A stretch of DNA of 64,000 bases from Chryseobacterium sp. 36-9. GTDB lineage: Bacteria; Bacteroidota; Bacteroidia; Flavobacteriales; Weeksellaceae. The stretch lies in assembly GCA_001898785.1 (NCBI GenBank), contig MKVE01000030.1:7721-71720 (forward strand), read 5' to 3'. Below the pieces are notes generated by a model. That model saw only the letters and a program-made list of their open reading frames with translations. It was not told the DNA's origin and ran no database searches. Numbering within the stretch: position 1 is the stretch's first letter; every line of letters begins with the position of its first letter. Positions 40,848 through 56,299 of the stretch are shown piece by piece. The translations under genes were made by a program, and so were the position numbers.

Positions 40848-41717
40848 ATGGAATATTTACATACAGTTTATGCAGTATTGCAAAGATGGTATATTAGTTT
40901 TGCTGAATTAACGCCAAGATTGGTTGTTGGGATTTTAGTATTTTTATTTTTCCTTACTACAAGTACATATCTCAGTCGCTGGTCTGTAAAATTATTTCAC
41001 AACCTTTTTCCAAAAACCAAAAATGATTCTGTAGTTACACTGATTACGGTGTTCAAATTCTTAATCATTCTCATGGGGACCTTTATAGCTTTGGAGATTA
41101 TGGGATTCAGTGGGTTTTTTCTCAAGTTCTTAGGAAGTTTGGGTGTTGCTGGGGTAATTGCCGGGGTTGCATTGAAGGATTTGGTATCAAGTATGTTTTC
41201 CGGAATGCTGGTTGGTATTGATAAATCGTTTAAAATTGGTGATTATGTGACAATTGGAGGGAATTCCGGAACAGTTCAGGATATTGGATTATTGACCACA
41301 AAACTGATTACTGACGATGGTAAAAAAGTTTATATACCCAATCAGGTTATTTTTAATGCGCCATTCTTTAACATTACGGCTTCTCCTCAGCGAAGAATCA
41401 TCATGGATTTTGAGATCCCTATTGGTGAAGATATTACCAAGGCCAAGCAGGCTGTTCTTGATGAGATAAAATCTTTGGAGCATGTAGATAAAACCGATTC
41501 AGTTAATGTTATTTTCACATCTGCAAAGCAGGGAATGTTTACAATGCAGGTTAATTTTTGGCTGGAAATAGGTGCCGACTTTGGACAGCTGAAGAGCCAG
41601 GCAATTATGAAAATCAATGAAAGACTTGCAGAAGAAGGTATTAGTCTTGTAACCCCAACAAGCATAAATATTACTAATACTGAGAATCTTTCTGAAAATA
41701 AAACAACGCAACAATAA
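40848..41717 (+). CDS. Small-conductance mechanosensitive channel, MscS family
   Basis: 289 residues. Three TM helices lie in 1-105, of which the pore helix carries the Gly/Ala pattern FLGSLGVAGVIAGVALKDLVSSMFSGMLVG. The beta domain has FKIGDYVTIGGNSGTVQDIGLLTTKL and VYIPNQVIFNAPFFN. The C-terminal alpha/beta domain ends near residue 275. It releases solutes on hypo-osmotic shock. It is single-gene, with its own terminator, and is the last chromosomal gene before the mobile element. Confidence 0.93.
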   Translation: MEYLHTVYAVLQRWYISFAELTPRLVVGILVFLFFLTTSTYLSRWSVKLFHNLFPKTKNDSVVTLITVFKFLIILMGTFIALEIMGFSGFFLKFLGSLGVAGVIAGVALKDLVSSMFSGMLVGIDKSFKIGDYVTIGGNSGTVQDIGLLTTKLITDDGKKVYIPNQVIFNAPFFNITASPQRRIIMDFEIPIGEDITKAKQAVLDEIKSLEHVDKTDSVNVIFTSAKQGMFTMQVNFWLEIGADFGQLKSQAIMKINERLAEEGISLVTPTSINITNTENLSENKTTQQ

Positions 41718-41720
41718 TAA

Positions 41721-41750
41721 AAAAGCCGATCCATTGGATCGGCTTTTTTA
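41721..41750 (+). terminator. mscS terminator
   Basis: AAAAGCCGATCC, a 3-base loop and GGATCGGCTTTT form a perfect 12-bp stem running into T residues. Confidence 0.92.
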
Positions 41751-41821
41751 TTTTAAAGTTTTTAGGTAAAAGCTGTATCGGCTGAATACTAAGCTTTTAT
41801 AAGGATAATCAAAGAAGTTAG

Positions 41822-41837
41822 GTAACGATTTGGTAAC
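41822..41837 (+). repeat. Left-end paired GTAAC motif (possible integrase arm site)
   Basis: GTAACGATTTGGTAAC contains two GTAAC units 11 bases apart. Nearly the same arrangement occurs at the right end (56137-56152) in the same orientation. Arm-type binding sites for the integrase are the likely explanation. Confidence 0.45.
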
Positions 41838-41864
41838 GGTGCTTATTGCTTTGCTTTTCAACGT

Positions 41865-41882
41865 GTTTCCGTTAGCTCATAG
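41865..41882 (-). repeat. Left-end copy of a short inverted end motif
   Basis: Read on the minus strand this is CTATGAGCTAACGGAAAC. The plus strand at 56053-56070 reads CTATGTGAGCTACGGAAC, so the two element ends share an imperfect inverted repeat. Confidence 0.4.
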
Positions 41883-42010
41883 CAAATATACAAAATTTAA
41901 GTTTTGATGTTAACTATCTAAATAATTATAAAAAACTTCTAAATATCAAAATGATTAATCTTCACTTTTAGCTGGTATTATCGAATGGCATATTTACTCC
42001 AATTTAGAAA

Positions 42011-43768
42011 CTACGTCCTAAATCCAATACTCGGTCTATCATTAGTGTTACTACTTTCTCCTTCCATTTTTGCTTTAATTACTAAATAGTTGTTTAACTC
42101 CTGCAAAGAGATTGATGGTTTATTGTTTCGGATTGTCTCCAAAACAACGGTTTTTGTAATTCGTGTATTTTCTTTCAATGCTTTTCGTGATGCTTCATCG
42201 CATAGAAATTTGATATCACTTGAGACATAGTTTTCGGTTGCTTTGGCTAATTCTTCGTAATTCAAACCAATTTCTGTCGGACGCTTTTTTAAGTACAATT
42301 CAAACATCAATTTACGGGCTTCAAAATCAGGTGGTGGCAAGTAAATATGTTTATCCAATCTCCCTGAACGCAAAATTGCTGGGTCAATAGCATTTGGTCT
42401 ATTAGTAGCACCAACAATAAAAATCCCGTCTTCTCCGCAATTATTCATCTGTGCTAAAAATTCATTGACTGCACTTGTGTTCATATGACTGATGTTGGAT
42501 GTGTCCCGACTAGGTACAAGTGCATCCAATTCGTCTATAAAAATTATACTCGGTGCGTTCTGCCTTGCTTCATCAAATAAATTCTTGATGTTTTCCTGTG
42601 AAGCATTGACGAATTTACTTTGAATGTCTGACGGTTTTATCTGGTAAAAATTAAATCCAATTTCTTCTGACATTTTCTCAGCAAAAAAAGTTTTACCGCA
42701 ACCAGGCGGACCATACAATAACATTCCGTTAGGAATAGTTAAACCATATTCTGCATATCGTTCTTTATCGTTCAAGGCGTCTATTACGTCTAATTGTATA
42801 GTGTCTTTCAATTCTTGCATTCCTGCAATTGCTGAAAATCCTTTGCCTTTTTTCTTTTCTTTTGGCTGAATTTTTGTGGTTTTTTCTTCTGGAATTGAAA
42901 ATTCAATTTCTAATTCTCCGTTTAATGTTTGAATAAATTCTTTTACAGACTTGAAACGGTTCCCCGCTTTTGATTGCAATGCTTTTCGGATTATGCTCTG
43001 CGTTTCTTCGTCTATTTTATCCGAAAATTTTAAAGGTTTTTTGCGTTCGTCTAAAATAACTTCCTCTAATTGTATTTTGTCAGATTTGTATTTGGATATT
43101 TCTACAAAGTAAGGCGGTAAACCTGTCAATAAATGGAAATATAAAGCACCGACCGAATAAATATCGCTTTGAGCAGAAAATACTTTATTAAACGTTTCAG
43201 TAGCTGTGTAAAACAAATTCAAACCATCTTTCAAAAAATCTTTGTTGGATTGTTGCAGAAAACGAGCATAACCAAAATCTATGATTTTAGGAATGGCGAT
43301 CTTACCTGATAAATCCAGCATTATATTTTGGTTGGTAATATCGTTATGAATGATTTGTTTGTTGTGCAGATAATTCAAACCATTTAAAACACTCAAAATG
43401 ATACTTTTTGCTTCATACGGATTGAGTGTATTTTCACGTTTCATTCTGTCGGCTAAAGTTTCTCCACTTACAAAATCCAAAACTACATAAGCATATTTAT
43501 GGCTGTCAATAATAGCATTTCCGCTATTGTTGTACTTTACCAAATTGGGATGCTTGATTTGTTTTAGCATTTCGATTTCCAAAATCTCCCCACTTTCCGT
43601 AAACTGTGTACGATGCAATTTTGCGAAGTCAAAAAGTTTTAGAAATTTGGTTGCTTTCGCTTCATTTTGTGCACGATAGGTCTCGGCATAACTTCCTTTT
43701 TTCAGAAAGAAGCTAACTGAATATTTATTGTCAATAGTTTGACCTTTGGATAATACGGATTTACTCAT
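42011..43768 (-). CDS. Ser/Thr protein kinase-AAA+ ATPase fusion
   Basis: 585 residues. The kinase domain covers about 15-285: Gly-rich loop FLKKGSYAET, candidate ATP Lys near 44, HPNLVKY, catalytic loop HNDITNQN (141-148, with HRD replaced by HND), DFG at 164-166 and SDIYSVGALYFHLLTG. A Lys-rich linker (about 295-310) leads to a Cdc48/FtsH/spastin-type AAA+ module: Walker A GPPGCGKT (353-360), Walker B IIFIDE (408-413), sensor Asn in GATNRP, and Arg fingers in LRSGRLD (467 and 470). All catalytic residues seem present. It probably phosphorylates partners and remodels proteins. It is the last gene of the six-gene leftward operon, with its ATG overlapping the upstream stop (ATGA). No TM segment is present. 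Confidence 0.88.
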   Translation of the reverse strand: MSKSVLSKGQTIDNKYSVSFFLKKGSYAETYRAQNEAKATKFLKLFDFAKLHRTQFTESGEILEIEMLKQIKHPNLVKYNNSGNAIIDSHKYAYVVLDFVSGETLADRMKRENTLNPYEAKSIILSVLNGLNYLHNKQIIHNDITNQNIMLDLSGKIAIPKIIDFGYARFLQQSNKDFLKDGLNLFYTATETFNKVFSAQSDIYSVGALYFHLLTGLPPYFVEISKYKSDKIQLEEVILDERKKPLKFSDKIDEETQSIIRKALQSKAGNRFKSVKEFIQTLNGELEIEFSIPEEKTTKIQPKEKKKGKGFSAIAGMQELKDTIQLDVIDALNDKERYAEYGLTIPNGMLLYGPPGCGKTFFAEKMSEEIGFNFYQIKPSDIQSKFVNASQENIKNLFDEARQNAPSIIFIDELDALVPSRDTSNISHMNTSAVNEFLAQMNNCGEDGIFIVGATNRPNAIDPAILRSGRLDKHIYLPPPDFEARKLMFELYLKKRPTEIGLNYEELAKATENYVSSDIKFLCDEASRKALKENTRITKTVVLETIRNNKPSISLQELNNYLVIKAKMEGESSNTNDRPSIGFRT

Positions 43769-44055
43769 TTTTTATTTTTTTTCGCCAAACTTACCAACAA
43801 TCCAACGCCAACAATCACATCTACAATATTCCACAATTCTCGTCCTAATGCAATTTTGAAAAATGGTTGAAATAGCAATGCTAATGCTCCATAGATAAAC
43901 ATTTCAGTTTGTCTACTTTGTTGATTAGCTTGATAAGCCAACACGCCAAAACCAATTAACGCTATAAAACGAACCAGTTGATAATAACCATAAGGCATAT
44001 CCAAAAGGCAACCAAACATTAAAACCGCTAAGCCTATTTTTATGATTTTTTCCAT
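43765..44055 (-). CDS. Small three-helix membrane protein (DUF6804-like)
   Basis: 96 residues from the ATG at 44055, one base after the lipoprotein stop; a longer frame from 44103 would overlap that gene and adds a polar lead. Three to four hydrophobic stretches and the phrase MPYGYYQLVRFIALIGFGVLAYQA are reminiscent of the small DUF6804 membrane family; that match is from memory. The stop overlaps the kinase-AAA start, so translation is coupled. The role is unknown; it could anchor or regulate the complex at the inner membrane. Confidence 0.65.
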   Translation of the reverse strand: MEKIIKIGLAVLMFGCLLDMPYGYYQLVRFIALIGFGVLAYQANQQSRQTEMFIYGALALLFQPFFKIALGRELWNIVDVIVGVGLLVSLAKKNKK

Positions 44056-44056
44056 T

Positions 44057-44698
44057 CTATAATGCTTCTTCGGGATTGCTTGGGCGAGTACTGAAATTTC
44101 CATTTTGTTGTAAAATCAATTCGTATTCTAACACATTATTATAAAGCGATTGTGGTTCGTCTTTCCCAAAATCTTCATTTGTAATGAATCCACCTTTTAT
44201 TTCGCCACCTTTCATCTCCTTTTCAGGATTCCAACCTTTTCCATAATAGAAAAAAGCTTGATAAGTACCATTTGGGAAAGAGAAAGTATAACCGTCACCT
44301 GCTTGAATAAAAGCGTGTCTTACAACTTTGTCATTTTTCTTGATAATTACTAAAACATCTGAATTGCTTGTTCGTACCTTTATTTGCGAACATCCATAAT
44401 CGCTACAAGTAGAGTTACTTCCATAATATCTGGAATAAGGAGTTGAACCAGTAAGCAAAGAATTAGAAATATACATATCGTAAAGTTCTTTTTCTTTTCG
44501 TTCTTTTTCTAGTTGAGCCTCTCTTTCTATACGGTCGGCTTCTTCTTGTTCAATGCGTACTTTTTCTAAACGAATAGCTTCCGCTTTTTCTGTTTCATTT
44601 TGCTTTTGCTCGAATTCAATACGCTCTTTTCTTGCTTGTTTCGATTCGCAAGAAGTTAAAAGAGCAACAATTAAAAAGATAGTTAATAGTTTTTTCAT
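44057..44698 (-). CDS. Lipoprotein with charged coiled coil
   Basis: 213 residues. The signal sequence ends with the lipobox LLTSC (Cys at about 17). Residues 20-72 are a highly charged Glu/Lys/Arg helix, likely a coiled coil. A C-terminal beta-rich domain (about 90-205) has DVLVIIKKNDKVVRHAFIQAGDG and aromatic FFYYGKGWNP. The two Cys in TCSDYGC may form a disulphide. It would face the periplasm, so the operon spans cytoplasm and envelope. It starts 11 bases after the Hsp70 stop. The family is not recognised. Confidence 0.7.
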   Translation of the reverse strand: MKKLLTIFLIVALLTSCESKQARKERIEFEQKQNETEKAEAIRLEKVRIEQEEADRIEREAQLEKERKEKELYDMYISNSLLTGSTPYSRYYGSNSTCSDYGCSQIKVRTSNSDVLVIIKKNDKVVRHAFIQAGDGYTFSFPNGTYQAFFYYGKGWNPEKEMKGGEIKGGFITNEDFGKDEPQSLYNNVLEYELILQQNGNFSTRPSNPEEAL

Positions 44699-44709
44699 AG
44701 TTTAGAATG

Positions 44710-47193
44710 TTAGCCCACCAAAATACCATCGCCATCACTAGGTCTTTCTGTAACCGGTAATAAATTAATTAACTCAATTACAATCGGATGCAAATCATCT
44801 GTATTTGGGTTTTCACCGATTTGTTGTAAACCTTCGTTCAATAATTGTCTTGCCCTGTGACTATCCGTCCAATGGAATTGTGAGAAATTCTGATTATGCT
44901 GTCTGATGAAACTAATAAGTTGATATACTAATGTCATTTGGAAAAATACTGAATGGATTTCCTCTGCCAATGTCTTACCTAATTTGATATCTTGTGATTT
45001 CAAAACCTCTTCCAATTGGTTTCGCAATTGATTTACAACTTGAGTAGATTGGTCGTTTCCTAAATCTTTATTGGCTTTCTCTAATCTATAAAATTCCTCT
45101 TTAAGCTCTTCTTCTAATTTTGGCCATTCTGCATCGCTCTCCAATTTATCAATAGTTTGAGCTACTTTTTGTAGTTCAGACCTTGCCTCCAATCTGCCTG
45201 ATTCTGTTTTGTTTGATTCAAATATTTTTTCAACTCTTTCTAAATCATCATTTATTTCGTTTCTTTTATTTTCATCAATCGTGTCAGATACTTCTCTATA
45301 ATTGGCTTTTACTTCTTGAATCTGTCTTTCTAACCATTCTGGTTTTACATCAGATTCATTTGATCCAACTTCAAATGGAAATTCAAAATCTATATCAATA
45401 AAACTTGCTACTCCTGTCATTATATTTGACCTGTCAATATCAATTTTAAGATTTATAATACTTCCTTCGGGCAATAGTGCTGGTAAATCATTTCCAGAAA
45501 TTTTGATTGTAGAAACGTGATTATTTATTACAGGCTTAGTGTTGGGCTCACCTTGATATATCGGTATTTCAATAGTATCATCCATTCCTGGTCTGATTTG
45601 TTTTTGTGTTTTCAAATCGTTGTAAATTCCAAATGATGGTAAAGTTTTATTCTTCTCTAAACCAATCAGTGGTTTTATAATATTCTTTCCTGTTACTTTG
45701 TCCATTACTTCTATACAAATAGCGTGAGGTAATGGTGCTCCGCCTGGTACAGATCCTTCTCTTATATCAAATAACTTAGGTTCGCAATCTAATCTGTTTC
45801 CTTTTTCATCGTAAGCTATAATTTCAAAGCCGTTATTATTTCCCTCAACCAGTTGTAATTCTATGACTTCTCCTATCTCATTTAGCTCAACTCTTTCACT
45901 CTTGAAAGCTTCATCTGTTCTTGAAATTTCAATAAAAACTGTTTTGTCTTTTTGATTTTCTCTTAATTTCAACGTAACATAAGTTTCTGTTCCTACAACC
46001 ATTGATTCATAATCAACTTTCAATTGAACTACAGAATTATCAATGCTATTATTGTCGCTTTCTACAGGATTGTTAATTGAAGAAGCATAAATTGCAGCAC
46101 CTTGTGCAACAACAGTCATCGGGTCAATACTTGTGTTTGGCGTTTTGATTTGCTCGGTAATCATTTCTCTTACAATAGGCGAAAGCGTTGGTCCTCCAAC
46201 TAAAATCAGTTCATCTAATTTACCTCCATCCAAGTTGTTTCTTTGTAATAATGTCTTACAGTAATCAATAGCTTTTTGGATAAATGGACTTATTATTTCT
46301 TTGAGTTTTGCTCGGGTAATAGTCAATTCGATTTCAAATTCTTCCCCGTTGTCATCTTCTCCATATTCATCATAAAGATTGGTCAGTATCGAATATTCTT
46401 CTTTGTAGGACAATTGATTTTTAGCATCCTCTGCTAAGGGCTTCCACATCTCTTTAAAAGCATTGAACCTCGCTGTAACTTCTAAAATAGAATCGATTGT
46501 ATATTTATTTTTTAGGTATGGAATAAATATTTCGTTCACGATTGCTTCATCTAGATTTTTTCCACCTAAAAAATTATCTCCTTCTGTATCTATTACTTTG
46601 ATGATTCCATCAGAGACTTTTACGAGTGCGGAATCAAATGTACCTCCTCCAAAATCGAACACTAACCAATATCCATTTTTGTTTGAAGATGAAACACCAT
46701 AAGCAATAGCAGCTGCGTAAGGCTCTTGCACCAATTCTACATATTCAATTCCTGCTAATTCAGCAGCTTTTTTCGTGGCGTTAATTTGATTCATTTCAAA
46801 TGCCGCTGGAATTGTTATAATTGCCGATTTTACATTTTCGGTATCTACAAAAGACTTTAATCTTTTCAATACTTCTGATGAAAGATCTTCCGAAGACAAT
46901 TCAATGCCTTTATCTGTTGTATAGACTTCGGAATTACCCATAGTTCTTTTGAATTCTATGAATATATTTGATTTGAAGTCCGATTCGTTAAATGCTTTCT
47001 TCTTATCTTTAGGAAGCTGGCCGTAAGCTTTATCACCAACGAGGCTACTCTTAGGTGTAACAAGCACACAAGATGGTAATGTGTCTCTTTGTGTGTCCGT
47101 TCTGAATAGTTTAGGTTTACCATTATCTATTACAGCAATTGCTGAATTGGTAGTTCCCAAGTCAATGCCGAAATCTATTTTTAATCTTGCCAT
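44710..47193 (-). CDS. Hsp70-family ATPase, divergent
   Basis: 827 residues, compared with about 640 for DnaK. The nucleotide-binding domain is intact: phosphate-1 DFGIDLGTTNSAIAV (about 7-21), ITIPAAFEMNQINATKKAAELAG, phosphate-2 VFDFGGGTFD (178-187) and adenosine LVGGPTLSPIVREM (331-344). The region after 390 is only loosely DnaK-like: a beta domain to about 640, then about 150 residues of charged helices and coiled coil, ending without an EEVD-type tail. It is thus closer to accessory Hsp70s than to housekeeping DnaK. It lies between the GrpE-like and lipoprotein genes in one operon, so a dedicated co-chaperone set is likely. The client is unknown. Confidence 0.92.
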   Translation of the reverse strand: MARLKIDFGIDLGTTNSAIAVIDNGKPKLFRTDTQRDTLPSCVLVTPKSSLVGDKAYGQLPKDKKKAFNESDFKSNIFIEFKRTMGNSEVYTTDKGIELSSEDLSSEVLKRLKSFVDTENVKSAIITIPAAFEMNQINATKKAAELAGIEYVELVQEPYAAAIAYGVSSSNKNGYWLVFDFGGGTFDSALVKVSDGIIKVIDTEGDNFLGGKNLDEAIVNEIFIPYLKNKYTIDSILEVTARFNAFKEMWKPLAEDAKNQLSYKEEYSILTNLYDEYGEDDNGEEFEIELTITRAKLKEIISPFIQKAIDYCKTLLQRNNLDGGKLDELILVGGPTLSPIVREMITEQIKTPNTSIDPMTVVAQGAAIYASSINNPVESDNNSIDNSVVQLKVDYESMVVGTETYVTLKLRENQKDKTVFIEISRTDEAFKSERVELNEIGEVIELQLVEGNNNGFEIIAYDEKGNRLDCEPKLFDIREGSVPGGAPLPHAICIEVMDKVTGKNIIKPLIGLEKNKTLPSFGIYNDLKTQKQIRPGMDDTIEIPIYQGEPNTKPVINNHVSTIKISGNDLPALLPEGSIINLKIDIDRSNIMTGVASFIDIDFEFPFEVGSNESDVKPEWLERQIQEVKANYREVSDTIDENKRNEINDDLERVEKIFESNKTESGRLEARSELQKVAQTIDKLESDAEWPKLEEELKEEFYRLEKANKDLGNDQSTQVVNQLRNQLEEVLKSQDIKLGKTLAEEIHSVFFQMTLVYQLISFIRQHNQNFSQFHWTDSHRARQLLNEGLQQIGENPNTDDLHPIVIELINLLPVTERPSDGDGILVG

Positions 47194-47206
47194 TTTTTAA
47201 TCAGTT

Positions 47207-48106
47207 TTATTCGTTAAAGGCAACAATTACCTTTGCTGCTTGTATCATTTTGTGGTTATAATTAACTTGGGGTTTTATAATGCGTTTTATGACTTGTTTT
47301 CCTTGTTCAATATTTTCATCAAATTCTAAAGTTGCAACCATATTAAGCCCTTGACTATAAGGTTGACCCATCAGAACAGGAATTTCGTATCCATACGCTT
47401 TTAAATTGTCCAAAATGGATTCAGAATATTTTTTTAGATGTTTATATCCTCTTATTTCTTTATCCATTACTTCCAGATTCATTAAAATTCGAGTTACTTC
47501 ATCAGCTACTTTAAGCACTAAAGAATGGTCTTTTTCGTCCGCTTCTTTGGTTGGAGCTTTTTCCTCTTGTTTTAACTTCAACTGTGATTCCAAAACTTCT
47601 ACCAGTTTGCTGTCCAATTTGATGCTTTCTTCTTCCAAAGCTGTTTTTGTGTTTTTTATTTGAGTTTCCACATCGGTTTTGCTGTTAGCAATACGTTTTC
47701 CTAATAGCCAATAGATAACTCCGCCTAAAAGTAATGTTGCCAATGTCGCAATTATCCAGTACAGCCGATTTTTACTAACATCTTGATCTAATTTAGAAAT
47801 GCTGTCTTTAGCAGAAGTTTCTGTCTGTTGGATTTTTGTACCCAAATCGTCTGCAATCGATTTAATATTTTCAACATTTTGACCTGTCTCCGTTTTAAGG
47901 CTGTCAATTTGTTTTTCTTGATTTGCAGTTTTTGAAGAAAGATTCTCCAATTCTGTTTTTTGCTGATTGATTACAGATTGTTGATTGTTTAATTTTTGTT
48001 TTAAAACAGAAATCTCCTGCTGTTGCTTTTGGAGTTCTGTATTTTGTTCTTGTGCAAAAAGTGTTGTTGCACAAAATAGTATTGGAATGAGTAGAGTTTT
48101 TTTCAT
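47207..48106 (-). CDS. Membrane-anchored coiled-coil protein with GrpE-like C-terminus
   Basis: 299 residues. A cleavable-type N-terminal signal (1-18, FAQ) is followed by a long Gln/Lys-rich coiled coil (about 20-110), one TM helix (about 115-135), a second coiled coil (140-185) and a C-terminal domain at 195-297. That domain follows the GrpE pattern: long helix, then GYEIPVLMGQPYSQGLNMV, EFDENIEQGKQVIKRIIKP and QAAKVIVAF, comparable to GrpE's hinge, beta domain and final strand. A nucleotide-exchange role for the adjacent Hsp70 is inferred. The topology would place the coiled coil in the periplasm and the GrpE-like part in the cytoplasm. The start abuts the upstream stop. Confidence 0.72.
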   Translation of the reverse strand: MKKTLLIPILFCATTLFAQEQNTELQKQQQEISVLKQKLNNQQSVINQQKTELENLSSKTANQEKQIDSLKTETGQNVENIKSIADDLGTKIQQTETSAKDSISKLDQDVSKNRLYWIIATLATLLLGGVIYWLLGKRIANSKTDVETQIKNTKTALEEESIKLDSKLVEVLESQLKLKQEEKAPTKEADEKDHSLVLKVADEVTRILMNLEVMDKEIRGYKHLKKYSESILDNLKAYGYEIPVLMGQPYSQGLNMVATLEFDENIEQGKQVIKRIIKPQVNYNHKMIQAAKVIVAFNE

Positions 48107-50014
48107 TTATTTATTCATTAATGTTTGCTTAACTTTTTTAATTTTATCCTGAACAGTTTTCACTTCTCTCTGTTTAGTTTCAGAAGCCCTAAACCATTGG
48201 AATTTTTCAACCTCTCTCAATTCGTTTTCCAACAATTGAATACTTCTTGTTAATTCGGCTTTCTTCTTTGGTGACCAATCAACTTTAAAAGTTTTAGTGT
48301 AAACCTTATAATGTTCTACATATATTTCAATTTTGTGTTCACCAACCATATAATTACATTCTTTTGCATTACCATAACCTTCAAGGTCAATTATTTTGGT
48401 CATAGGTGTAATTGTGAAATCTTTTGAAGTGGAATAATTTTTAGGTGAAGATTTATCATTTCTCTTAATTGTTCCATCTGGGTTTAAGTACTTTTTGTAA
48501 ATAGTAACCTTTTGTGTTCCTGTTGAATGAACTTTTATTTTTATTCCAACATACCTAATATCTTCAACATAAAATGGATTCTCGATATGTTTTGAATTAG
48601 AATCTGTATTTGTAATTTCTCCTGAAAGAATTTCAAAACATAAGTTTGGAACAATTTTTTTGTAGTTCTCAATTATGCGTGAAATTGTGGCAGACTTTAA
48701 TGAGTTATTTTCTGTCCAATTGATTAATTCCCAAAACTCTTTTTTAATTTCCGACTTATCACTTTCTTTAATTTTCTTTAAATTCTTATCTGTTAAGATT
48801 CCAGATACTAAATCATTTACATTTCCCCAATTAATTGAATTTCTAATATTTTCCTCTACCGCACTCCAATTAATGGTCTTATGACCCATTCTTAAAAGAA
48901 AGTCAGTTTCTTCCATTTTTTTCACTTCCTGCCTTATTTTTCTTTCATTTTCAGCATATGCTTCTTTAACAGAATTTAGAAACATCACTATTTCTGAAAT
49001 CTCTCTATCTTTCATTCCTTCAAGTGTACTGATATTTTCTTTTACTTTGTTTTTGGTTGCATCATTTACCGCTATGCTTTCGGCTAATTTTGCCAGTTTC
49101 ATAGCCTCTTCAAGATAATTGTTGCTTTTTTCTTGCTTTTGGCTTTCATTGAAATAATCAACAGAACATTGTAATATTTCTTTAGCTACATTGTCAGCCA
49201 ACATCTTGTATTGTAGATTAGCATTACCTACAATAGATTTTAAAAGAGTTAATTCGCTTTTGGTATTACTGTATAAATCAGTTGCACACTTATAAACATT
49301 GATTTTATCTTTTGTGCGTTTTTTGGTGCATTGTTCAATTTGTGTTTCAATTTTATGAATAGGCTCTTCGGTAAACTTTTTGGAAAGATATTTTTGAGTA
49401 GTTCCGTTACAATTGCTGAACAACTCCATTGTTTCTGAAGTTGAATATTTGCCTTTGAATTGCGCTAGTAATTCATCAATCAATAGTTCAATTTGCTTTG
49501 GTGTATCAATAGAAAAAGTCTCGTCAGCAACTATATGAACAAAATCTTTAAAATTTTCCGATTCAATTAGTTTTATTTTGGTAGTAATTCCTCGTTTTAA
49601 ATCTTCTTTGGAATGTCCCGACAAATAAAGCGTACTGATATTATTGAAAGCTGAATAATTTTTTGAGTTAACCTCTTTCTCATTGCTTAATTTTTCCCAA
49701 ATTTCAGAAGCTTTTTCTTTGTTTCCGCTTATCAGATGCTGGATTGCCGTATTATCAATGGGATTGAGATTGAGAAACCAAAATAGGGAATAGAAAACTT
49801 TATTCTGATTTTGTTCGATGTCAGAAAAAGCCTTGTCAATAATGGTACTACTCCTTTGTAAAGAGGATAGAAAAGGAAAATCATATTCAGAAGAGATTTC
49901 TTTACCTACTTCGCTGAATCTCTTGACTTTACTTTTTTGTTTCAGAATATCTTTCTCGGAACTGTTAGCGAGAATTCCTGCAATTCTATAGGGATTATTT
50001 ATAACTGATTTCAT
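48107..50014 (-). CDS. Large protein with J-like N-terminus, first gene of the chaperone operon
   Basis: 635 residues from the ATG at 50014; a longer frame starts at 50062. The N-terminus, NNPYRIAGILANSSEKDILK followed by a basic helix, resembles helices I-II of a J domain (NPY-x-x-LG-x5-S-x2-EI). The HPD signature is not seen. Helical, possibly TPR-like segments follow to about 440, then a beta domain (about 480-580) with YVGIKIKVHSTGTQKVTIYKKYL, and a C-terminal coiled coil. No TM segment is present. It is the promoter-proximal gene next to GrpE-like and Hsp70 genes, so a substrate-recruiting co-chaperone is a reasonable guess. The J-like call is tentative. Confidence 0.6.
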   Translation of the reverse strand: MKSVINNPYRIAGILANSSEKDILKQKSKVKRFSEVGKEISSEYDFPFLSSLQRSSTIIDKAFSDIEQNQNKVFYSLFWFLNLNPIDNTAIQHLISGNKEKASEIWEKLSNEKEVNSKNYSAFNNISTLYLSGHSKEDLKRGITTKIKLIESENFKDFVHIVADETFSIDTPKQIELLIDELLAQFKGKYSTSETMELFSNCNGTTQKYLSKKFTEEPIHKIETQIEQCTKKRTKDKINVYKCATDLYSNTKSELTLLKSIVGNANLQYKMLADNVAKEILQCSVDYFNESQKQEKSNNYLEEAMKLAKLAESIAVNDATKNKVKENISTLEGMKDREISEIVMFLNSVKEAYAENERKIRQEVKKMEETDFLLRMGHKTINWSAVEENIRNSINWGNVNDLVSGILTDKNLKKIKESDKSEIKKEFWELINWTENNSLKSATISRIIENYKKIVPNLCFEILSGEITNTDSNSKHIENPFYVEDIRYVGIKIKVHSTGTQKVTIYKKYLNPDGTIKRNDKSSPKNYSTSKDFTITPMTKIIDLEGYGNAKECNYMVGEHKIEIYVEHYKVYTKTFKVDWSPKKKAELTRSIQLLENELREVEKFQWFRASETKQREVKTVQDKIKKVKQTLMNK

Positions 50015-50100
50015 TGTAATTTCTACGGTCTGGCAATTTATATGCTTTTTTTTATTATTCACTACGGTTTTCCGTAAAAAACAAAAAAATAACGTGAGCT

Positions 50101-50238
50101 AATTCCCCTTGTTCGTATCTGCGGTGGTCGAATACCGATAGCACAAAGCAAAAAGGAACGCCCACGCTTTACCGTAGGCGTTTCCACTTTTACTTTCCTG
50201 TGCTATTTGAAATTTTCGACCTTTCAGATACAGGAATT
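50101..50238. repeat. Nested 138-bp inverted repeat in the leader of the chaperone operon
   Basis: Five arms pair in order: AATTCC (50101) with GGAATT (50233), GTATCTG (50115) with CAGATAC (50225), GGTCGAA (50126) with TTCGACC (50215), ATAGCACA (50138) with TGTGCTAT (50199), and GGAACGCC (50155) with GGCGTTTCC (50177). The loop is 14 bases. It lies between the relaxase stop and the first cargo gene, both leftward. It could be an mRNA leader structure, a terminator-attenuator or a protein-binding cruciform. Confidence 0.7.
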
Positions 50239-50314
50239 TATAAAGCGAAACGCTATATTTTTATATATCTATTTTTCTTTGTTTTAACTCATTGAAACTT
50301 CTTTTGTTCTCCTG

Positions 50315-50322
50315 CAAATATA
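50315..50322 (-). promoter_or_regulatory. Possible -7 element for the cargo operon
   Basis: On the minus strand TATATTTG matches TAnnTTTG, about 50 bases downstream of the relaxase stop in transcription order. No well-spaced -33 TTG is seen. If used, the transcript would carry the nested inverted repeat in its 5' leader. Confidence 0.35.
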
Positions 50323-50370
50323 TGAAAAATACGTCAAGGATTTCATCTGTAGGACATTTCAAAGTCTATT

Positions 50371-51636
50371 CTACAATTTTCTCCCTTTCTTCTTTTTCTT
50401 CATCCGATTAGCAAACTGTTCTTCTTCGTAATCCTCGCCTTGTGCATCGGATAGCAGGCTAAACAATCCCAAATCGGTATTAGGCGAATGTTCCTGTGAG
50501 AGAAACTCAAAAAGGTCTTTTGTAGGTGGTAGGTTGTCTATTTCATTTGCTTTAGAAACAGGGTTATCTTGTATCTTCAATTCGGGTTTATTTCCATTGT
50601 TCCACCAATCATTGAATACGTTTGCCGACAAGTTTCTGTCCAAAGACGAACCGTTCCAAACGATACGGCTTTCGTGGTCGATAAAGGTCATACCGTAAAT
50701 TCGTCCTTCACTATTACGTCTTACAACTGTATTAATACCCTGCTCAGTCAACTGCTTTTTAAAATCTGTTTCATTGCTTGTGGTATGTATGGCAAGCCCC
50801 ACCGTATTTTTCAGAACAGACCTTACAGGCGTGGTTTTCATTTTTTCTTTGGACTGCTCAAAATGCTTTTGTAATTGTGCAACGCCTGCATCTTTTCCGA
50901 AAAGTGATGCTTTGAACGGATTGCTTGCCTTGTTTCCGTTTTCATCCAATGCCACATACACCAATCCGTTTACAGTTTGACCGTTCCGCTCGCCTTTGAC
51001 TTCTTCCGCTGTGATGTTGAAAAGCGACAGTAATGCATTATAGCTTCCCATAGTTGAGAATCTATAATATTTCGGCAGGTGTCTAACAACCGAAGCTATC
51101 TGGCTTTTGATATCGCCAGTTTGATAATTTACAGGTTTGAAAATCTTATCATTCTGCTTTTGTTCTACTTCTGTTGCTTGCTTGAGGTTGTATTTCTGCT
51201 CCAAATCCCGACAGATTGCCATTGATCGTGCGTGGTCGTAATCATCGGGGATTTTCTTTCCGTCTATACCCACGCAGGTTGAAACGATATGGATATGTGA
51301 TCGGTCAATATCCGTATGCTTGAAAACAATATAGGGCTGATTGCCATAGCCCATACGCTCCATATAAACGCGAGCCATTTCGGCAAACTGTTCATCGCTG
51401 ACCTTATCCGTAGGATCTGGGTTCAGCGATATATGGCGCACTGTCTTTTCTGTTTTGATATTTGCCGATAGGTAAGGTTCAAAACACTGATTAAAATACG
51501 AAGCAGAATACCTGCCGTCCATTGTATCGGCTATCTTGTTCAGCAACAAAACCGCTCCATTTTCCTTGTCCACTTTCTGCTGATTGTACAGGATAGCACC
51601 GTACATATTGCTTCCCTTCCCGATTTTTGCAATCAT
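50371..51636 (-). CDS. Relaxase/mobilization nuclease (MobB type)
   Basis: 421 residues. This is the relaxase that nicks oriT and pilots the transferred strand. The N-terminus MIAKIGKGSNMYGAILYN is typical of Bacteroidota MobB relaxases. The three-His metal motif is in FKHTDIDRSHIHIVS (about 105-120), and the candidate nicking Tyr lies in the N-terminal third. The tail is a Lys-rich basic stretch. The gene follows mobA by 4 bases. Downstream, where related conjugative elements have the coupling protein mobC, the cargo operon begins instead. Confidence 0.9.
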   Translation of the reverse strand: MIAKIGKGSNMYGAILYNQQKVDKENGAVLLLNKIADTMDGRYSASYFNQCFEPYLSANIKTEKTVRHISLNPDPTDKVSDEQFAEMARVYMERMGYGNQPYIVFKHTDIDRSHIHIVSTCVGIDGKKIPDDYDHARSMAICRDLEQKYNLKQATEVEQKQNDKIFKPVNYQTGDIKSQIASVVRHLPKYYRFSTMGSYNALLSLFNITAEEVKGERNGQTVNGLVYVALDENGNKASNPFKASLFGKDAGVAQLQKHFEQSKEKMKTTPVRSVLKNTVGLAIHTTSNETDFKKQLTEQGINTVVRRNSEGRIYGMTFIDHESRIVWNGSSLDRNLSANVFNDWWNNGNKPELKIQDNPVSKANEIDNLPPTKDLFEFLSQEHSPNTDLGLFSLLSDAQGEDYEEEQFANRMKKKKKGRKL

Positions 51637-51640
51637 TTTT

Positions 51641-52075
51641 CTACTCTTTTTTCAGGTATTTCTTTTCAAATTCTGTGGTTAGGGCAACAACCTTCAGCAA
51701 CAGTTCTTTCATTTCTTCCGTTTGTTTTTCCAACTTATAGAGGTATGCCGATGCCTTTTTATCTGAAAAATTAGAGTTCAACAGCTTTACAATCTGATTG
51801 TAATTGGTTGCGATCCCTCTGAATTGGCTAAAAAATCTGGTCAATCCTTCGTGGTATTCTACTGCATCCATATTAATTTTGACGGTCTTTACGGTCTTCT
51901 GAAAGATGCAAGCCGTAATAAAATGAGCTATTACTTTCATTCCCGATTGGTCAAAGAGGGCAAGGAACTTGGCATTGTCTTCTGCATTCAGGTTAATGGA
52001 ATACCGATTGACAGCAGGGTCGTTCTTCGGTTTTCTTCCTGTTTTACTAATCTTTTTTCTGTCTTTCTCTTCCAT
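51641..52075 (-). CDS. Mobilization accessory protein MobA
   Basis: 144 residues. Basic N-terminus (KISKTGRKPKNDPAVNRYSI) with a ribbon-helix-helix-like start (NRYSINLNAEDNAKFLALFDQSG), a middle helical region with FFSQFRGIATNYNQIVKLLN, and a C-terminal coiled coil. It matches the small MobA proteins next to MobB in CTnDOT-type elements, which bind oriT and help the relaxase. Start ATG at 52075; the intergenic region upstream probably contains oriT. Confidence 0.85.
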   Translation of the reverse strand: MEEKDRKKISKTGRKPKNDPAVNRYSINLNAEDNAKFLALFDQSGMKVIAHFITACIFQKTVKTVKINMDAVEYHEGLTRFFSQFRGIATNYNQIVKLLNSNFSDKKASAYLYKLEKQTEEMKELLLKVVALTTEFEKKYLKKE

Positions 52076-52139
52076 AATAAATCCATTTTAATTTTTAATA
52101 AATGAGCGACTTCGGAGCCGTTTCCAGCCCCCAGCAAGG

Positions 52140-52235
52140 GCAAGTGCTTTTGAGGTGCCGAAATTCATTTCGAGTACCTCAAAAGATAACTTGCTCTGAA
52201 CAAGGGTTCAGAAAAATCCGTTTTGCAAACGGATT
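52140..52235. other. Candidate oriT: two hairpins upstream of mobA
   Basis: The first hairpin has GCAAGT/ACTTGC (52140, 52189) around CTTTTGAGGT (52147-52156)/ACCTCAAAAG (52176-52185), with inner CGAAAT/ATTTCG. The second is a perfect 9-bp stem, AATCCGTTT (52215-52223)/AAACGGATT (52227-52235). Paired hairpins next to mob genes are typical of transfer origins. The nick site cannot be assigned by eye. The rest of 52076-52613 holds no clear gene. Confidence 0.45.
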
Positions 52236-52322
52236 GTAGTTAGCAGGGAAAACCCATAGCTTCCATTACAAATTTCGGTAAGACTATTTGAATACCAGCT
52301 ATTTACAACAATGAAAATGAAC

Positions 52323-52336
52323 GCCAAATGATGCCA
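52323..52336 (+). promoter_or_regulatory. Copy 1 of the GCCAAATRMYGCCA motif
   Basis: GCCAAATGATGCCA, about 280 bases before the DUF3408 gene. Two more copies of the same 14-mer pattern lie at 53548 and 54012, all in intergenic DNA of the mobile element and in the same orientation. Confidence 0.5.
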
Positions 52337-52613
52337 CTGAATACCACCTTAAAGCAGATTGGGACTGCTTTTATTTCCTTTGTATATGGCTAGCTAGCTG
52401 ATTGGTTATATCCTTAATGAAGTAACTAAACAGCATAAATCCCGACAGCAAATCTGCGTGATTGAATGCAGACGAATTGCAGATTTTTGGGTTAATGAAC
52501 TAACCAATTAAGGGTATGCAGGTGCTTAGGTAGATAGGTAGTTACATAGATACAACAGTATATACAGCTGATTGCTTAGTTAACCAAACAGCTAATTGGA
52601 TATAATATTAAAA

Positions 52614-53117
52614 ATGATAGATATGATACACGAAGAAAACAAAGATCAGCAACCCGAAAAAGAGGATTTCTCTATTGAAAATTTCATAACTGATGAAAAT
52701 AAACAATCTTTCACGGAACAACAGGTAGTAACACATCGGGAAGATTTTGTCAAACCCAAAGTAGATGAGGAAGCTATTATGCGTGTAATGGCAGGCGAAG
52801 AACCTTCGGAAACTGAAACGGAAAACACAAAAACACCTGCGAGTAATACAAAAAGGATGATTTACAAGCCAAAGAAGCTGACCAAAGAGGACTACTGCGG
52901 ACGGTTCTTCAAAATTCCCACGACAACGGCAAGCAGGGGGAAATCAGTGTATGTACGGCAGGAACACCACGAAACATTTAACAGACTTACAAACATTATG
53001 GGCATCGACAAACTGACGATTTATGCGTATCTGGACAACATTATCGAATACCACTTTCAGGAGTTCGGGGAATTGATTAGGGAAATCTATGACGAGAAAC
53101 ACAAACCGTTGTTTTGA
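52614..53117 (+). CDS. DUF3408 family mobile-element protein
   Basis: 167 residues. The acidic, low-complexity N-terminal half is followed by a conserved C-terminal domain (YCGRFFKIPTTTASRGKSVYV, RQEHHETFNRLTNIMG, LTIYAYLDNIIEYHFQEF) typical of DUF3408. These proteins accompany transfer and mobilization genes of Bacteroidota conjugative transposons and may bind DNA via a ribbon-helix-helix-like fold. The frame opens at a TTG (52596). ATG 52614 is chosen; 52623 is also possible. It is divergent from mobA. Confidence 0.85.
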   Translation: MIDMIHEENKDQQPEKEDFSIENFITDENKQSFTEQQVVTHREDFVKPKVDEEAIMRVMAGEEPSETETENTKTPASNTKRMIYKPKKLTKEDYCGRFFKIPTTTASRGKSVYVRQEHHETFNRLTNIMGIDKLTIYAYLDNIIEYHFQEFGELIREIYDEKHKPLF

Positions 53118-53624
53118 TAACTATACGTGGTGGGTGGTACGTTTCTACCTCTTAAAATTATTTTCCAAAAGAAAAAAACAGAAAAAAAAGAAAGCCATTT
53201 TAACAAGGGGACAGGCGGAAAAACCAAAAGGAAACGGAATAAGTCCCGAAGGGTGGCAGGGCACACAACAAACTCGGCGAAGCCACCATATTTGCCCTGC
53301 CATTATGCCGTAGTCTTTTGGTTGGGTGGTGCGGTGGCTGTCCACCTTATCTTTGCTCCCTTTTTTATTCTTTTTTTAATCAATTCCAATCAAAGAAAGA
53401 GTATAAAAAACACGTAAGGGCTAAGGATAGGGTGTTTTTTGTATGCTTTCCTTTATCCTTACAAAACTCTTTAAATGTATGAGGGCTTTGCGAGGAAAAT
53501 TTAAAGTGTTTTGAGGATTACTTTCTATTCATGTTGTGCCAACATAAGCCAAATACTGCCACATAATGCCAAATGAAAACAATACATTCCCTTGTGTTCT
53601 ATATTGGGTGCAAATTTTGAACCT
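53118..53624. other. Intergenic stretch with a G+C-rich hairpin
   Basis: About 500 bases without a convincing gene; several short frames overlap here in both directions and look spurious. GGCAGGGCA (53255-53263) pairs with TGCCCTGCC (53293-53301), with a small inner GGC-GAA-GCC hairpin. It may be a regulatory or transfer-related structure. Confidence 0.5.
53548..53561 (+). promoter_or_regulatory. Copy 2 of the GCCAAATRMYGCCA motif
   Basis: GCCAAATACTGCCA, followed by a further half copy GCCAAAT at 53568-53574, about 65 bases before the ATG of the next gene. Confidence 0.5.
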
Positions 53625-53990
53625 ATGGCACAAAAAGTAATACCTGACAAAGAGCAGAAAGAGAAAGAACATAGTCCTTTGATACAGGTTGATAAGCAGA
53701 GTGACCCGATTTCTAATTTCATCGCTAATTTAAAACGTCAGTTCAGGGAAGCAAAAGGCTTAATAGATTGGAACAGGCTATTCGGGGGAAAACGTACTGA
53801 ACAACAAAAGCAGACTTCCGAACCTGAAAGCATAATAGGTGCGACAAAAACGCTTATCCGTTCGGACTTCAAAAATGAAGAAAAAAATCAGGCTATACAG
53901 ACCAATAAAAAGCCTGCTTTAAAAATGGACAATACAATCATAACGCAACAGTCTCGTCCTAAAAGTAAGAAACCAAAGTTAGGATTATAG
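53625..53990 (+). CDS. Hypothetical mobile-element protein
   Basis: 121 residues from the ATG at 53625; an in-frame ATG at 53592 would add 11 residues overlapping the presumed control region. The product is hydrophilic, Lys/Gln-rich and largely disordered in appearance, with one helical patch (SNFIANLKRQFREAKGLIDWNRLFGG) and a basic end. No family recognised. Its place between DUF3408 and the HTH genes is typical for such small accessory genes. Confidence 0.6.
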   Translation: MAQKVIPDKEQKEKEHSPLIQVDKQSDPISNFIANLKRQFREAKGLIDWNRLFGGKRTEQQKQTSEPESIIGATKTLIRSDFKNEEKNQAIQTNKKPALKMDNTIITQQSRPKSKKPKLGL

Positions 53991-54011
53991 CCTAGTATTT
54001 GGCAACTGTAC

Positions 54012-54025
54012 GCCAAATACCGCCA
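54012..54025 (+). promoter_or_regulatory. Copy 3 of the GCCAAATRMYGCCA motif with an inverted half site
   Basis: GCCAAATACCGCCA lies 17 bases before the HTH gene start. It is preceded by ATTTGGC at 53997-54003, which makes a dyad ATTTGGC-N8-GCCAAAT. The dyad suggests a dimeric regulator, possibly one of the adjacent HTH proteins. Confidence 0.55.
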
Positions 54026-54042
54026 TCGGATGCAACATTAAA

Positions 54043-54387
54043 ATGACCTATGTGAATAGCTTTTATTTTAGAGGTTTAAATGATGCAGATATGGAAATAA
54101 CAGTTTTAGACATTCAGATTTTGAAAGCATTGCATAGGGAAGTTAAGGAAGTTTCCAATTTGATAGCGGAAATGACTACACCCTACAAAGCACTGCAACA
54201 GGCAACGAAATGGCTCGACCAGCAGGAAGCCTGTCAACTGCTCAACATCAGCAAACGAACATTGCAGACTTACAGGTCAAAAGGTATTCTTGGGGCAACG
54301 CAAATCAATCGTAAGACTTATTTCAGATTATCCGAAGTGGAGTTACTTATGCAGGGAGAGCGACCATTAAAAAAGCAAAAGAAATGA
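54043..54387 (+). CDS. Excisionase-like helix-turn-helix protein
   Basis: 114 residues. A C-terminal MerR/excisionase-type winged HTH: WLDQQEACQLLNISKRTLQT then YRSKGILGATQINRKTYFRLSEVELLM. Such proteins act in excision and gene control of Bacteroidota conjugative transposons. ATG 54043 is used; an internal ATG (54091) is possible. The stop overlaps the next start (ATGA), and the two products are clearly paralogous. Confidence 0.82.
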   Translation: MTYVNSFYFRGLNDADMEITVLDIQILKALHREVKEVSNLIAEMTTPYKALQQATKWLDQQEACQLLNISKRTLQTYRSKGILGATQINRKTYFRLSEVELLMQGERPLKKQKK

Positions 54388-54665
54388 AACAGATTGGAGA
54401 TTCAAACGAAGATATGCTTGCCTTGCTCGAAGCTGTGGTAGGCATCAAAAATGAACTGCTGTATATCAGAGAATATTTCCACCCATTACTAAAAGGGGAA
54501 ATCTATCTGTCAGGTGAACAGGTTTGCGAGATGTTACACATCAGCAAACGGACATTGCAACAGTACAGGGATGACGGACTGATACCTTTTATCAAGCTCG
54601 AACGAAAAATCCTTTTCCGTGAAAGCGATATTATCAAGGTATTGGAAGATAACTATCAGCGTTAG
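54384..54665 (+). CDS. Second excisionase-like helix-turn-helix protein
   Basis: 93 residues with the same winged HTH as its upstream neighbour (GEQVCEMLHISKRTLQQYRD, DGLIPFIKLERKILFRESDI), so the pair arose by tandem duplication. It is translationally coupled to the first. It is likely a recombination directionality factor or regulator for the adjacent integrase. A terminator follows within about 50 bases. Confidence 0.82.
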   Translation: MKQIGDSNEDMLALLEAVVGIKNELLYIREYFHPLLKGEIYLSGEQVCEMLHISKRTLQQYRDDGLIPFIKLERKILFRESDIIKVLEDNYQR

Positions 54666-54716
54666 CTGATTAAATGAATGCTTTGAAACTGTAACCCGTA
54701 TCGGTCAATTAAAGAA

Positions 54717-54753
54717 ACAGCCCACTGCTTAAAGCGGTGGGCTGTGTTGTTTT
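54717..54753. terminator. Strong bidirectional terminator between HTH pair and integrase
   Basis: ACAGCCCACTGC (54717-54728) pairs with GCGGTGGGCTGT (54734-54745) through 12 bp with one G-T. It is flanked by T residues on the right; A residues on the left would serve the converging integrase gene. Confidence 0.85.
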
Positions 54754-54772
54754 AAAAAATTGTGACATAATG

Positions 54773-56029: not shown

Positions 56030-56052
56030 AATTCTTAATGATAAAATTAAAC

Positions 56053-56070
56053 CTATGTGAGCTACGGAAC
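56053..56070 (+). repeat. Right-end copy of the short inverted end motif
   Basis: CTATGTGAGCTACGGAAC is the imperfect inverted counterpart of the sequence at 41865-41882. Confidence 0.4.
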
Positions 56071-56136
56071 AATATGAAAAACTATGCAGAAAGCTGAAAT
56101 ACAGTATTTTAAAACGATTGTTTCTAATATTTAAAA

Positions 56137-56152
56137 GTAACGTTTTAGTAAC
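56137..56152 (+). repeat. Right-end paired GTAAC motif (possible integrase arm site)
   Basis: GTAACGTTTTAGTAAC has the same 11-base spacing of two GTAAC units as 41822-41837. Just outside, TTACTTTTGC (56154-56163) is one base from GTAnnTTTGC, the CTnDOT target motif as I recall it. Confidence 0.45.
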
Positions 56153-56208
56153 CTTACTTTTGCCAAACCTCGCTTTTTACTGCTTTTTACCTCATTACCA
56201 AAAATCAT

Positions 56209-56243: not shown

Positions 56244-56299
56244 GCCTGTTGTTAATCTTTGATGTATTTTTACTGAAACTTTATTTTAAAATCTTAGTC

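What the first reader, a model, noticed from the sequence alone, without database searches (positions are those of the whole stretch)
42011..50062. Chaperone-kinase cargo operon: J-like, GrpE-like, Hsp70, lipoprotein, small membrane protein, kinase-AAA+
Six leftward genes with gaps of 13 bases or less and two start/stop overlaps form one operon on a mobilizable element. Three products map to the Hsp70 cycle: an accessory 827-residue Hsp70, a GrpE-like exchange factor on a membrane anchor, and a protein with a J-like N-terminus. A Ser/Thr kinase fused to an AAA+ unfoldase completes it, with a lipoprotein and a small membrane protein. I know of no described defence, stress or transfer system with this set. 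Plausible roles are anti-phage sensing by misfolded or viral proteins, envelope stress response, or stabilising the element.
Basis: partly seen in the sequence, partly recalled or inferred. Interest (0 to 1): 0.92.

Follow-up and report, generated by a model that had tools for sequence, protein, structure and literature searches.

The report
Mobile membrane-linked Hsp70 chaperone operon
A mobile DNA element carries a conserved, undescribed set of genes for what looks like a membrane-tethered protein-remodelling machine (a special Hsp70, its helpers and an unfolding motor), found patchily across Bacteroidota and perhaps used to sense and counter attacks on the cell envelope.

Summary
The six-gene operon is real and recurs. 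One scan of GTDB genomes with its J-like protein gave 79 loci; J-like, GrpE-like, Hsp70 and kinase-AAA genes lie in that order in 67, and the other 12 are cut by a contig end. TerB (54), DUF6804 (44) and a lipoprotein family (16) accompany them.

Parts were re-identified. The GrpE-like protein has a GrpE fold behind a signal-like segment, a coiled coil and a membrane helix. The J-like N-terminus weakly resembles a J domain, lacks HPD (77 of 77) and carries an exchangeable C-terminus, often a membrane anchor. The AAA part is Cdc48/p97-like; the fused kinase keeps its catalytic Asp in only 34 of 65. In seven loci the J-like protein is fused, beyond a hydrophobic stretch, to the domain of a secreted partner.

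My reading: a mobile Hsp70-Cdc48 remodelling machine wired to the envelope, probably for defence. It is patchy and horizontally moved, and lies beside Ssp, restriction or BREX genes in a few loci; but my small control showed no clear defence enrichment. Ten literature searches found no description; nearest is the predicted GAP1-N2 HSP70/GrpE theme.

The parts
48107..50014 (-). J-like protein, 635 aa from ATG 50014 (ORF open to 50062): HPD-less J-like N-terminus, helical middle, beta-sandwich and coiled coil at the C-terminus
47207..48106 (-). Membrane GrpE: signal-like N-terminus, coiled coil, one membrane helix, GrpE domain (about residues 189-298)
44710..47193 (-). Hsp70, 827 aa: DnaK-type ATPase domain with intact catalytic residues and a long divergent C-terminal half
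44057..44698 (-). Lipoprotein with lipobox, charged coil and C-terminal domain that is fused to the J-like protein in four other loci
43765..44055 (-). DUF6804 small hydrophobic membrane protein (ORF open to 44103)
42011..43768 (-). Kinase-like domain (HND instead of HRD) fused to a single Cdc48/p97-type AAA domain
50015..50300 (-). Operon leader: terminator-like hairpin at 50157-50182 and a palindrome ACGG-N4-CCGT at 50064-50075
50371..52075 (-). Relaxase (50371-51636) and MobC (51641-52075) of the carrier element; a cargo slot lies behind the relaxase in related elements
54773..56029 (-). Tyrosine integrase of the carrier element
41703..56280 (.). Approximate extent of the insertion between an mscS-like gene and sucC (gene names by my reading)

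Best explanation
The operon encodes an accessory Hsp70-AAA remodelling machine tethered to the inner membrane and connected to the outside of the cell at both control points of the Hsp70 cycle. Shown by sequence or structure prediction: a conserved four-gene core; an Hsp70 with an intact ATPase site; a GrpE domain behind a membrane helix and an N-terminal coiled coil; an HPD-less J-like protein, often with a membrane anchor and in seven loci fused to a domain of secreted partner proteins; a Cdc48/p97-type AAA domain with an intact ATPase site and an aromatic pore loop, joined to a kinase-like domain whose catalytic Asp is missing in about half the members. Inferred: the lipoprotein (or its counterparts) and the coiled coil sense an event in the envelope, such as phage entry or a contact toxin; the signal changes J-like docking and GrpE-driven nucleotide exchange; Hsp70 then captures a client and hands it to the AAA ring, which unfolds or extracts it, as in DnaK-ClpB or Cdc48 systems; the kinase-like domain serves mainly as an ATP-binding or docking module. 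The most likely use is defence against invaders.
For: Gene order kept in 67 of 67 loci not cut by a contig end and correlated distances of the four proteins over 64 loci, r 0.69-0.90. GrpE fold: the 12 best Foldseek matches are GrpE; membrane helix in 77 of 77. Fusions of the J-like protein to lipoprotein or SH3-type domains behind a hydrophobic stretch in seven loci. AAA: Walker Lys, Walker Glu, sensor Asn and an Arg finger in 65 of 65, pore-loop aromatic in 65 of 65. Hsp70: five catalytic positions unchanged in 46 of 46. Accessory and mobile: 3 of 148 relatives, 7-8 of 394 in the phylum sample, the same element at 92.9% in Myroides, empty sites. J-like C-terminal class changes at least 20 times on the Hsp70 tree. 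Defence context: BREX, Ssp and type I restriction; related elements carry restriction systems in the same cargo slot.
Against: No function was tested. PADLOC control: 83 control proteins matched 99 families, against 122 (74 proteins) and 115 (83 proteins) near the operon, and the control held a CBASS-like set. Other elements carry non-defence cargo in the same slot. GrpE by Pfam in only 5 of 66, fewer than the coiled-coil family EssA, 18 of 66. The topology is not clear-cut: K/R counts favour the GrpE end inside in 51 of 77, a tie in the window. J-domain similarity is weak (probability 43%), and no J domain is in the fold lists. J-like dN/dS is about 0.23, so no positive selection. Not all parts recur: the lipoprotein family in 16 of 79, TerB absent here.
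Confidence: 0.5

Rival explanations
1. Envelope protein quality control: an accessory, ERAD-like machine that extracts misfolded or jammed inner-membrane proteins under stress, spread as an adaptive trait and not aimed at invaders.
For: Same anatomy. DjlA, a membrane J protein with a TerB-like domain, works with DnaK and GrpE on the Rcs envelope pathway (PMC11709261, passages), and TerB is in 54 of 79 loci here. The cargo slot also holds genes outside defence.
Against: Patchy occurrence, rapid exchange of the J-like C-terminus and neighbours such as Ssp, restriction and BREX fit defence better, but are not decisive.
Confidence: 0.3
2. A function for the carrier element itself, such as transfer, entry exclusion or maintenance.
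For: In the window the operon lies directly behind the relaxase, as does a divergent copy in L188.
Against: Among scanned neighbours a relaxase was listed for 2 of 83 in one set and is absent from the capped list of the other 74; related elements have unrelated cargo in the slot.
Confidence: 0.06
3. A general-purpose duplicate of the DnaK system that merely adds folding capacity.
For: Intact Hsp70 ATPase site; simpler pairs of a mini-GrpE and a long Hsp70 without the kinase-AAA gene exist in other genomes.
Against: Membrane GrpE, fusions to secreted domains, absence of HPD and a Cdc48-type partner are unlike the DnaK system.
Confidence: 0.07

Closest known systems
HSP70/GrpE theme of the predicted GAP1-N2 GTPase-centric conflict systems (PMC7159879, passages read)
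   Same: HSP70 and GrpE genes, a DnaJ domain fused to a repeat protein, a role near the membrane with extracellular domains
   Different: Those centre on DO-GTPases, GAP1 and FNIII proteins, mainly in actinobacteria and firmicutes; the window operon has no GTPase by Pfam but a Cdc48-type AAA with a kinase-like domain and a membrane GrpE
DjlA-DnaK-GrpE acting on the Rcs envelope phosphorelay (PMC11709261, passages read)
   Same: Membrane-anchored J protein, TerB-like domain, DnaK and GrpE acting on envelope signalling
   Different: DjlA has a functional J domain and uses the housekeeping DnaK and GrpE; here all parts are dedicated, the J-like domain lacks HPD, and an AAA motor is added
DnaK-ClpB disaggregase (recalled)
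   Same: Hsp70 cycle coupled to a threading AAA+ ring
   Different: AAA of Cdc48 type with a kinase-like domain; membrane-tethered co-factors
Mitochondrial import motor PAM: mtHsp70, Pam18/Pam16, Mge1 (recalled; search listing)
   Same: J and J-like proteins at a membrane and a GrpE drive an Hsp70; Pam16 is a J-like protein without HPD (recalled)
   Different: No AAA partner there; here the GrpE itself crosses the membrane and the system is accessory and mobile
bNACHT25 with host DnaJ (PMC12169576, abstract and outline read)
   Same: Chaperone-dependent sensing of phage
   Different: Uses the host DnaJ and a NACHT effector; none of these is in the operon

Membership tests
Hsp70 (DnaK) | Hsp70 ATPase domain with catalytic residues | tested here: met
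   PF00012 E 1e-69; five catalytic positions unchanged in 46 of 46
Hsp70 (DnaK) | Substrate-binding domain and lid | tested here: inconclusive
   Only a weak second match, i-Evalue 47, to DnaK residues 440-499; no model was made of this half
GrpE | GrpE fold (helices and beta domain) | tested here: met
   12 best Foldseek hits are GrpE, best E 2.6e-5; VIA Z 8.4, rmsd 3.5, 104 residues to 1dkg_B, with BAG-domain chains at 8.0-8.9 on the helices
GrpE | Pfam GrpE gathering score | tested here: not met
   Window 18.3 against 25.8 bits; 5 of 66 members reach E 0.01, best 7.3e-7
J-domain proteins | HPD motif | tested here: not met
   0 of 77 in residues 21-60
J-domain proteins | J-domain profile or fold | tested here: inconclusive
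   HHalign score 24.7, probability 43%, helices I-II, best of 99 controls 15.65; no Pfam DnaJ in 52 members; no J domain in the fold lists
Active Ser/Thr kinase | HRD and DFG catalytic residues | tested here: inconclusive
   Window HND and DFG present; over the family the catalytic Asp in 34 of 65, DFG Asp in 61 of 65
Cdc48/p97-type AAA | Cdc48-type AAA domain with Walker motifs, Arg finger and aromatic pore loop | tested here: met
   Best PDB matches Cdc48/VAT, E 3e-128; motifs
Cdc48/p97-type AAA | Full Cdc48 architecture (NCBIfam TIGR01243 cut-off) | tested here: not met
   192.5 bits against 802.65; a single AAA domain
GAP1-N2 HSP70-theme conflict systems | DO-GTPase, GAP1 and FNIII proteins | tested here: not met
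   No such family among the six window proteins by Pfam; the other loci were not tested for it
Known defence systems in PADLOC-DB (MADS, PD-T4-6, IetAS and others) | Whole-protein match to a system component | tested here: not met
   Kinase-AAA matches only through its separate kinase or AAA part; the J-like, lipoprotein and DUF6804 proteins have no match and the Hsp70 and GrpE-like ones only weak ones, E 0.0036 or worse; MAD6 140.9 of 460 bits, IteA 105.9 of 510

The most novel reading that the evidence does not exclude
A new class of bacterial immune machine in which the Hsp70 cycle itself is the signal transducer: an extracytoplasmic sensor acts through a membrane J-like protein and a transmembrane GrpE, so that Hsp70 loads invader proteins, or host proteins whose loss stops the infection, into a Cdc48-like unfoldase, while exchangeable J-like C-termini diversify localisation or target choice.
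Probability: 0.35. Interest if true: 0.95.

Novelty: categorically new. Interest (0 to 1): 0.82.

Why it matters
Chaperones are usually host factors that other systems borrow. An accessory, horizontally moved operon that brings its own Hsp70, a membrane GrpE and a Cdc48-type motor, wired to the envelope, would be a new way for a cell to sense and act, and a bacterial parallel to membrane-tethered Hsp70 motors and to Cdc48 extraction. It makes it testable whether nucleotide exchange on an Hsp70 can be controlled from outside the cell. With 79 loci in 34 named genera, a tractable host can be chosen.

Tried and rejected
Chance clustering: rejected (67 of 79). Phage-borne origin: a scan of viral contigs matched 100 stretches, none a relative of the J-like protein; 37 phage records match the Hsp70, none over 80% of it. 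Wide spread in Pseudomonadota: 1 of 299 genomes, the Psychrobacter bin used as centre. Plasmids: one record of 72,556.

Defence enrichment: undecided. I gave 157 of 165 near neighbours to Pfam and PADLOC; only the first 25 families of each answer are shown. Control: 83 of 118 ORFs from 17 regions. Ten neighbours were then scanned singly: 2 are Ssp, 1 a type I restriction subunit, 1 UvrD-like, 1 matches mad3, 5 have nothing. N6_Mtase positions in 44 genomes were not used as a count, because contig numbers could not be matched to most loci.

Also without result: Rfam on 41500-56400; a clear att pair among direct repeats; sigma-70-type promoters, 29 found against 35.0 in shuffles. Fold matches of the J-like model to helical repeats and Ig-like domains were taken as common arrangements.
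Full report
What is there. The six minus-strand ORFs are as described. They lie behind a relaxase and MobC on an insert that also has a tyrosine integrase. Of 23 same-genus genomes (own included) 21 have each flank. Of the 20 relatives with both flanks, 17 have them on one contig: 8 at most 118 bp apart, 2 about 588 bp apart, 7 with 4.2-9.2 kb between them; the window's insert is about 14.6 kb. The operon is cargo in an insertion hotspot. An element 92.9% identical over 10.5 kb is in Myroides sp. N17-2 (L081).

Recurrence. The J-like protein was found in 3 of 148 relatives, own genome included. In the phylum sample 20 of 394 genomes matched: 7 (own included) along the J-like core at E 1e-34 or better, 1 at its N-terminus only, and 12 only in the C-terminal part. 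On plasmids it occurs once, in Haliscomenobacter hydrossis pHALHY02, with GrpE-like, Hsp70, AAA and TerB genes behind it and BREX genes next to it. The GTDB scan gave 226 pattern matches and 79 loci; by record title 76 are Bacteroidota, 2 Pseudomonadota and 1 unranked, in 34 named genera. With a profile for each part, all four core genes are present in order in 67, in a few as pieces; the 12 others lack a gene only where the locus ends 0-182 bases behind the last hit. TerB is in 54, DUF6804 in 44, the lipoprotein family in 16. The window's arrangement (lipoprotein and DUF6804 between Hsp70 and kinase-AAA, no TerB) is that of 4 of the 79 (L054, L056, L081, L088). Over the 64 loci with all four proteins complete, distances correlate at r 0.69-0.90, with 0 of 500 permutations as high.

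The GrpE-like protein. The AlphaFold2 model (66 sequences, mean pLDDT 81.9, pTM 0.45) is a 174-residue helix, two further helices and a beta domain. The 12 best Foldseek matches are GrpE chains, best E 2.6e-5. VIA aligns residues 189-298 to 1dkg_B with Z 8.4, rmsd 3.5, 104 residues; BAG-domain chains score 8.0-8.9 on the helices. By sequence 5 of 66 members match Pfam GrpE at E 0.01, best 7.3e-7, while 18 match the coiled-coil family EssA. A hydropathy script finds an N-terminal hydrophobic stretch in 76 of 77 and a membrane helix in 77 of 77; K/R counts favour the GrpE end inside in 51 of 77, with a tie in the window. I infer signal peptide, periplasmic coiled coil, membrane helix and cytoplasmic GrpE.

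The J-like protein. In 52 members no Pfam family matches more than one, and DnaJ none. HHalign of the first 85 residues against 27 J domains gives score 24.7 (probability 43%) over helices I-II; the best of 99 control windows is 15.65. HPD is absent in 77 of 77. The model (52 sequences, mean pLDDT 87.4, pTM 0.53) is helical with a beta-sandwich and coiled coil at the end; no J domain is in the fold lists. Median pairwise identity is 34% over residues 1-350 and 17% beyond. Of 77 proteins, 42 have a hydrophobic segment beyond residue 300, at least 15 a CFI-box (2 have both), and 22 neither by these simple tests. On the 64-locus Hsp70 tree the C-terminal class (TM 34, coil 17, CFI 13) needs 20 changes; shuffles need 26.2 on average and none of 200 as few, the possible minimum is 2. 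The C-terminus is thus an often exchanged module with some clustering.

Link to the outside. A simple lipobox pattern fits 15 of 17 lipoproteins. The lipoprotein's C-terminal domain is found inside the J-like protein, behind a hydrophobic stretch, in L071, L083, L094 and L117 (E 2e-10 to 4e-17); the C-terminal domain of a second secreted family (SH3-like by my reading) in L106, L107 and L111 (E 2e-6 to 4e-9). No separate full-length copy of either gene was found in these seven stretches, though L071 and L083 hold pieces of the SH3 family and L117 ends inside Hsp70. Gene fusions of this kind are the best evidence that the J-like protein works with an extracytoplasmic partner.

The kinase-AAA protein. 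The profile's best PDB matches are Cdc48/VAT, E 3e-128. Walker Lys, Walker Glu, sensor Asn and one Arg finger are kept in 65 of 65, a pore-loop F, Y or W in 65 of 65. In the kinase part the beta-3 Lys is kept in 63 and the DFG Asp in 61 of 65, but the catalytic Asp is Asp in 34, Glu in 27 and other or missing in 4, and the Arg of HRD is Asn in 60. The window has HND. Catalysis cannot be a general requirement.

The Hsp70. The ATPase domain is clear and five catalytic positions are unchanged in 46 of 46. The C-terminal half matches DnaK only weakly (i-Evalue 47).

Mosaic evolution. Between window and L081 dS rises along the operon: 0.017 (kinase-AAA), 0.034, 0.040, 0.165, 0.285, 0.42 (J-like); protein identity is 99.3, 100, 96.7, 97.7, 92.0 and 82.8%. 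I read this as recombination at the J-like end. J-like dN/dS is about 0.23.

Is it defence? For: patchiness, mobility, module exchange, BREX beside pHALHY02, SspB and SspC beside L071, a type I restriction subunit beside L117. Among 157 neighbours PADLOC also listed methyltransferases, DISARM, Cas1 and PDC models, nearly all with one member. Relatives of the carrier: of 25 other places with 78-85% identity to relaxase and MobC I fetched 20. Behind the relaxase L188 holds a divergent copy of the same operon (Hsp70 42%, kinase-AAA 54%, lipoprotein 76% identical to the window's), L182 a type IIG restriction enzyme with PDC-S06 and PDC-S05 (same gene lengths in L192), and L187 type I restriction genes (L190 has the same HsdM start; L194 and L195 similar gene lengths). 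Against: 10 proteins from 6 of the 20 were scanned, and L180, L181 and L193 gave no PADLOC match while L198 gave a regulator. The PADLOC control (83 proteins, 99 families matched, a CBASS-like set among them) is close to the neighbours (122 families in 74 proteins and 115 in 83). Defence is my most likely use, not a shown one.

Known or new. Ten searches of an open-licence library without preprints found no description of this set. The nearest is the HSP70/GrpE/DnaJ theme of GAP1-N2 GTPase systems (PMC7159879, passages), whose GTPase and GAP1 the window operon lacks. The nearest tested pathway is DjlA with DnaK and GrpE acting on Rcs (PMC11709261, passages). A precedent for chaperone-based phage sensing is bNACHT25 with DnaJ (PMC12169576, abstract and outline). 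I rate the architecture categorically new; its parts belong to known families.

Noticed in passing
L178:7697-10487, L179:8163-10970, L177:1982-4769: A simpler relative: a mini-GrpE of 95-97 aa next to a long Hsp70 of about 830 aa, without the kinase-AAA gene; in L178 it lies beside genes that look like gldKLMN by my reading.
   Followed up: partly
L176:2041-5655 and L035:5974-12042: Variants without the kinase-AAA gene in the stretch held: mini-GrpE, Hsp70, TerB and DUF6804 (L176), and a 941-aa protein with a J-like part upstream of a long Hsp70 (L035).
   Followed up: partly
window 50064-50075, and 61-68 nt upstream of the J-like gene in other loci: A palindrome ACGG-N3..6-CCGT lies there in 12 of 73 loci; the background is 0.011 per 300 nt. 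It looks like an operator; no regulator is known to me.
   Followed up: partly
window 41703-56280: The mscS-sucC gap is an insertion hotspot in the genus: 7 of 17 relatives with both flanks on one contig hold 4.2-9.2 kb there.
   Followed up: partly
window 56040-56290: About 250 bp beside the integrase recur at 76-98% identity elsewhere in this and other genomes of the genus, probably a shared end of related elements.
   Followed up: no
L188 (G915:C45:41850-51849): A related carrier element holds a distant lineage of the same operon in the same slot, as if the slot had captured it twice.
   Followed up: partly
L042, L072, L091 (two Hsp70 genes); L043, L102, L107 (two J-like genes): Tandem extra copies of Hsp70 or J-like genes occur within the operon.
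   Followed up: no
L096:10001-11489: The J-like gene appears split into three ORFs while the other core genes are whole.
   Followed up: no
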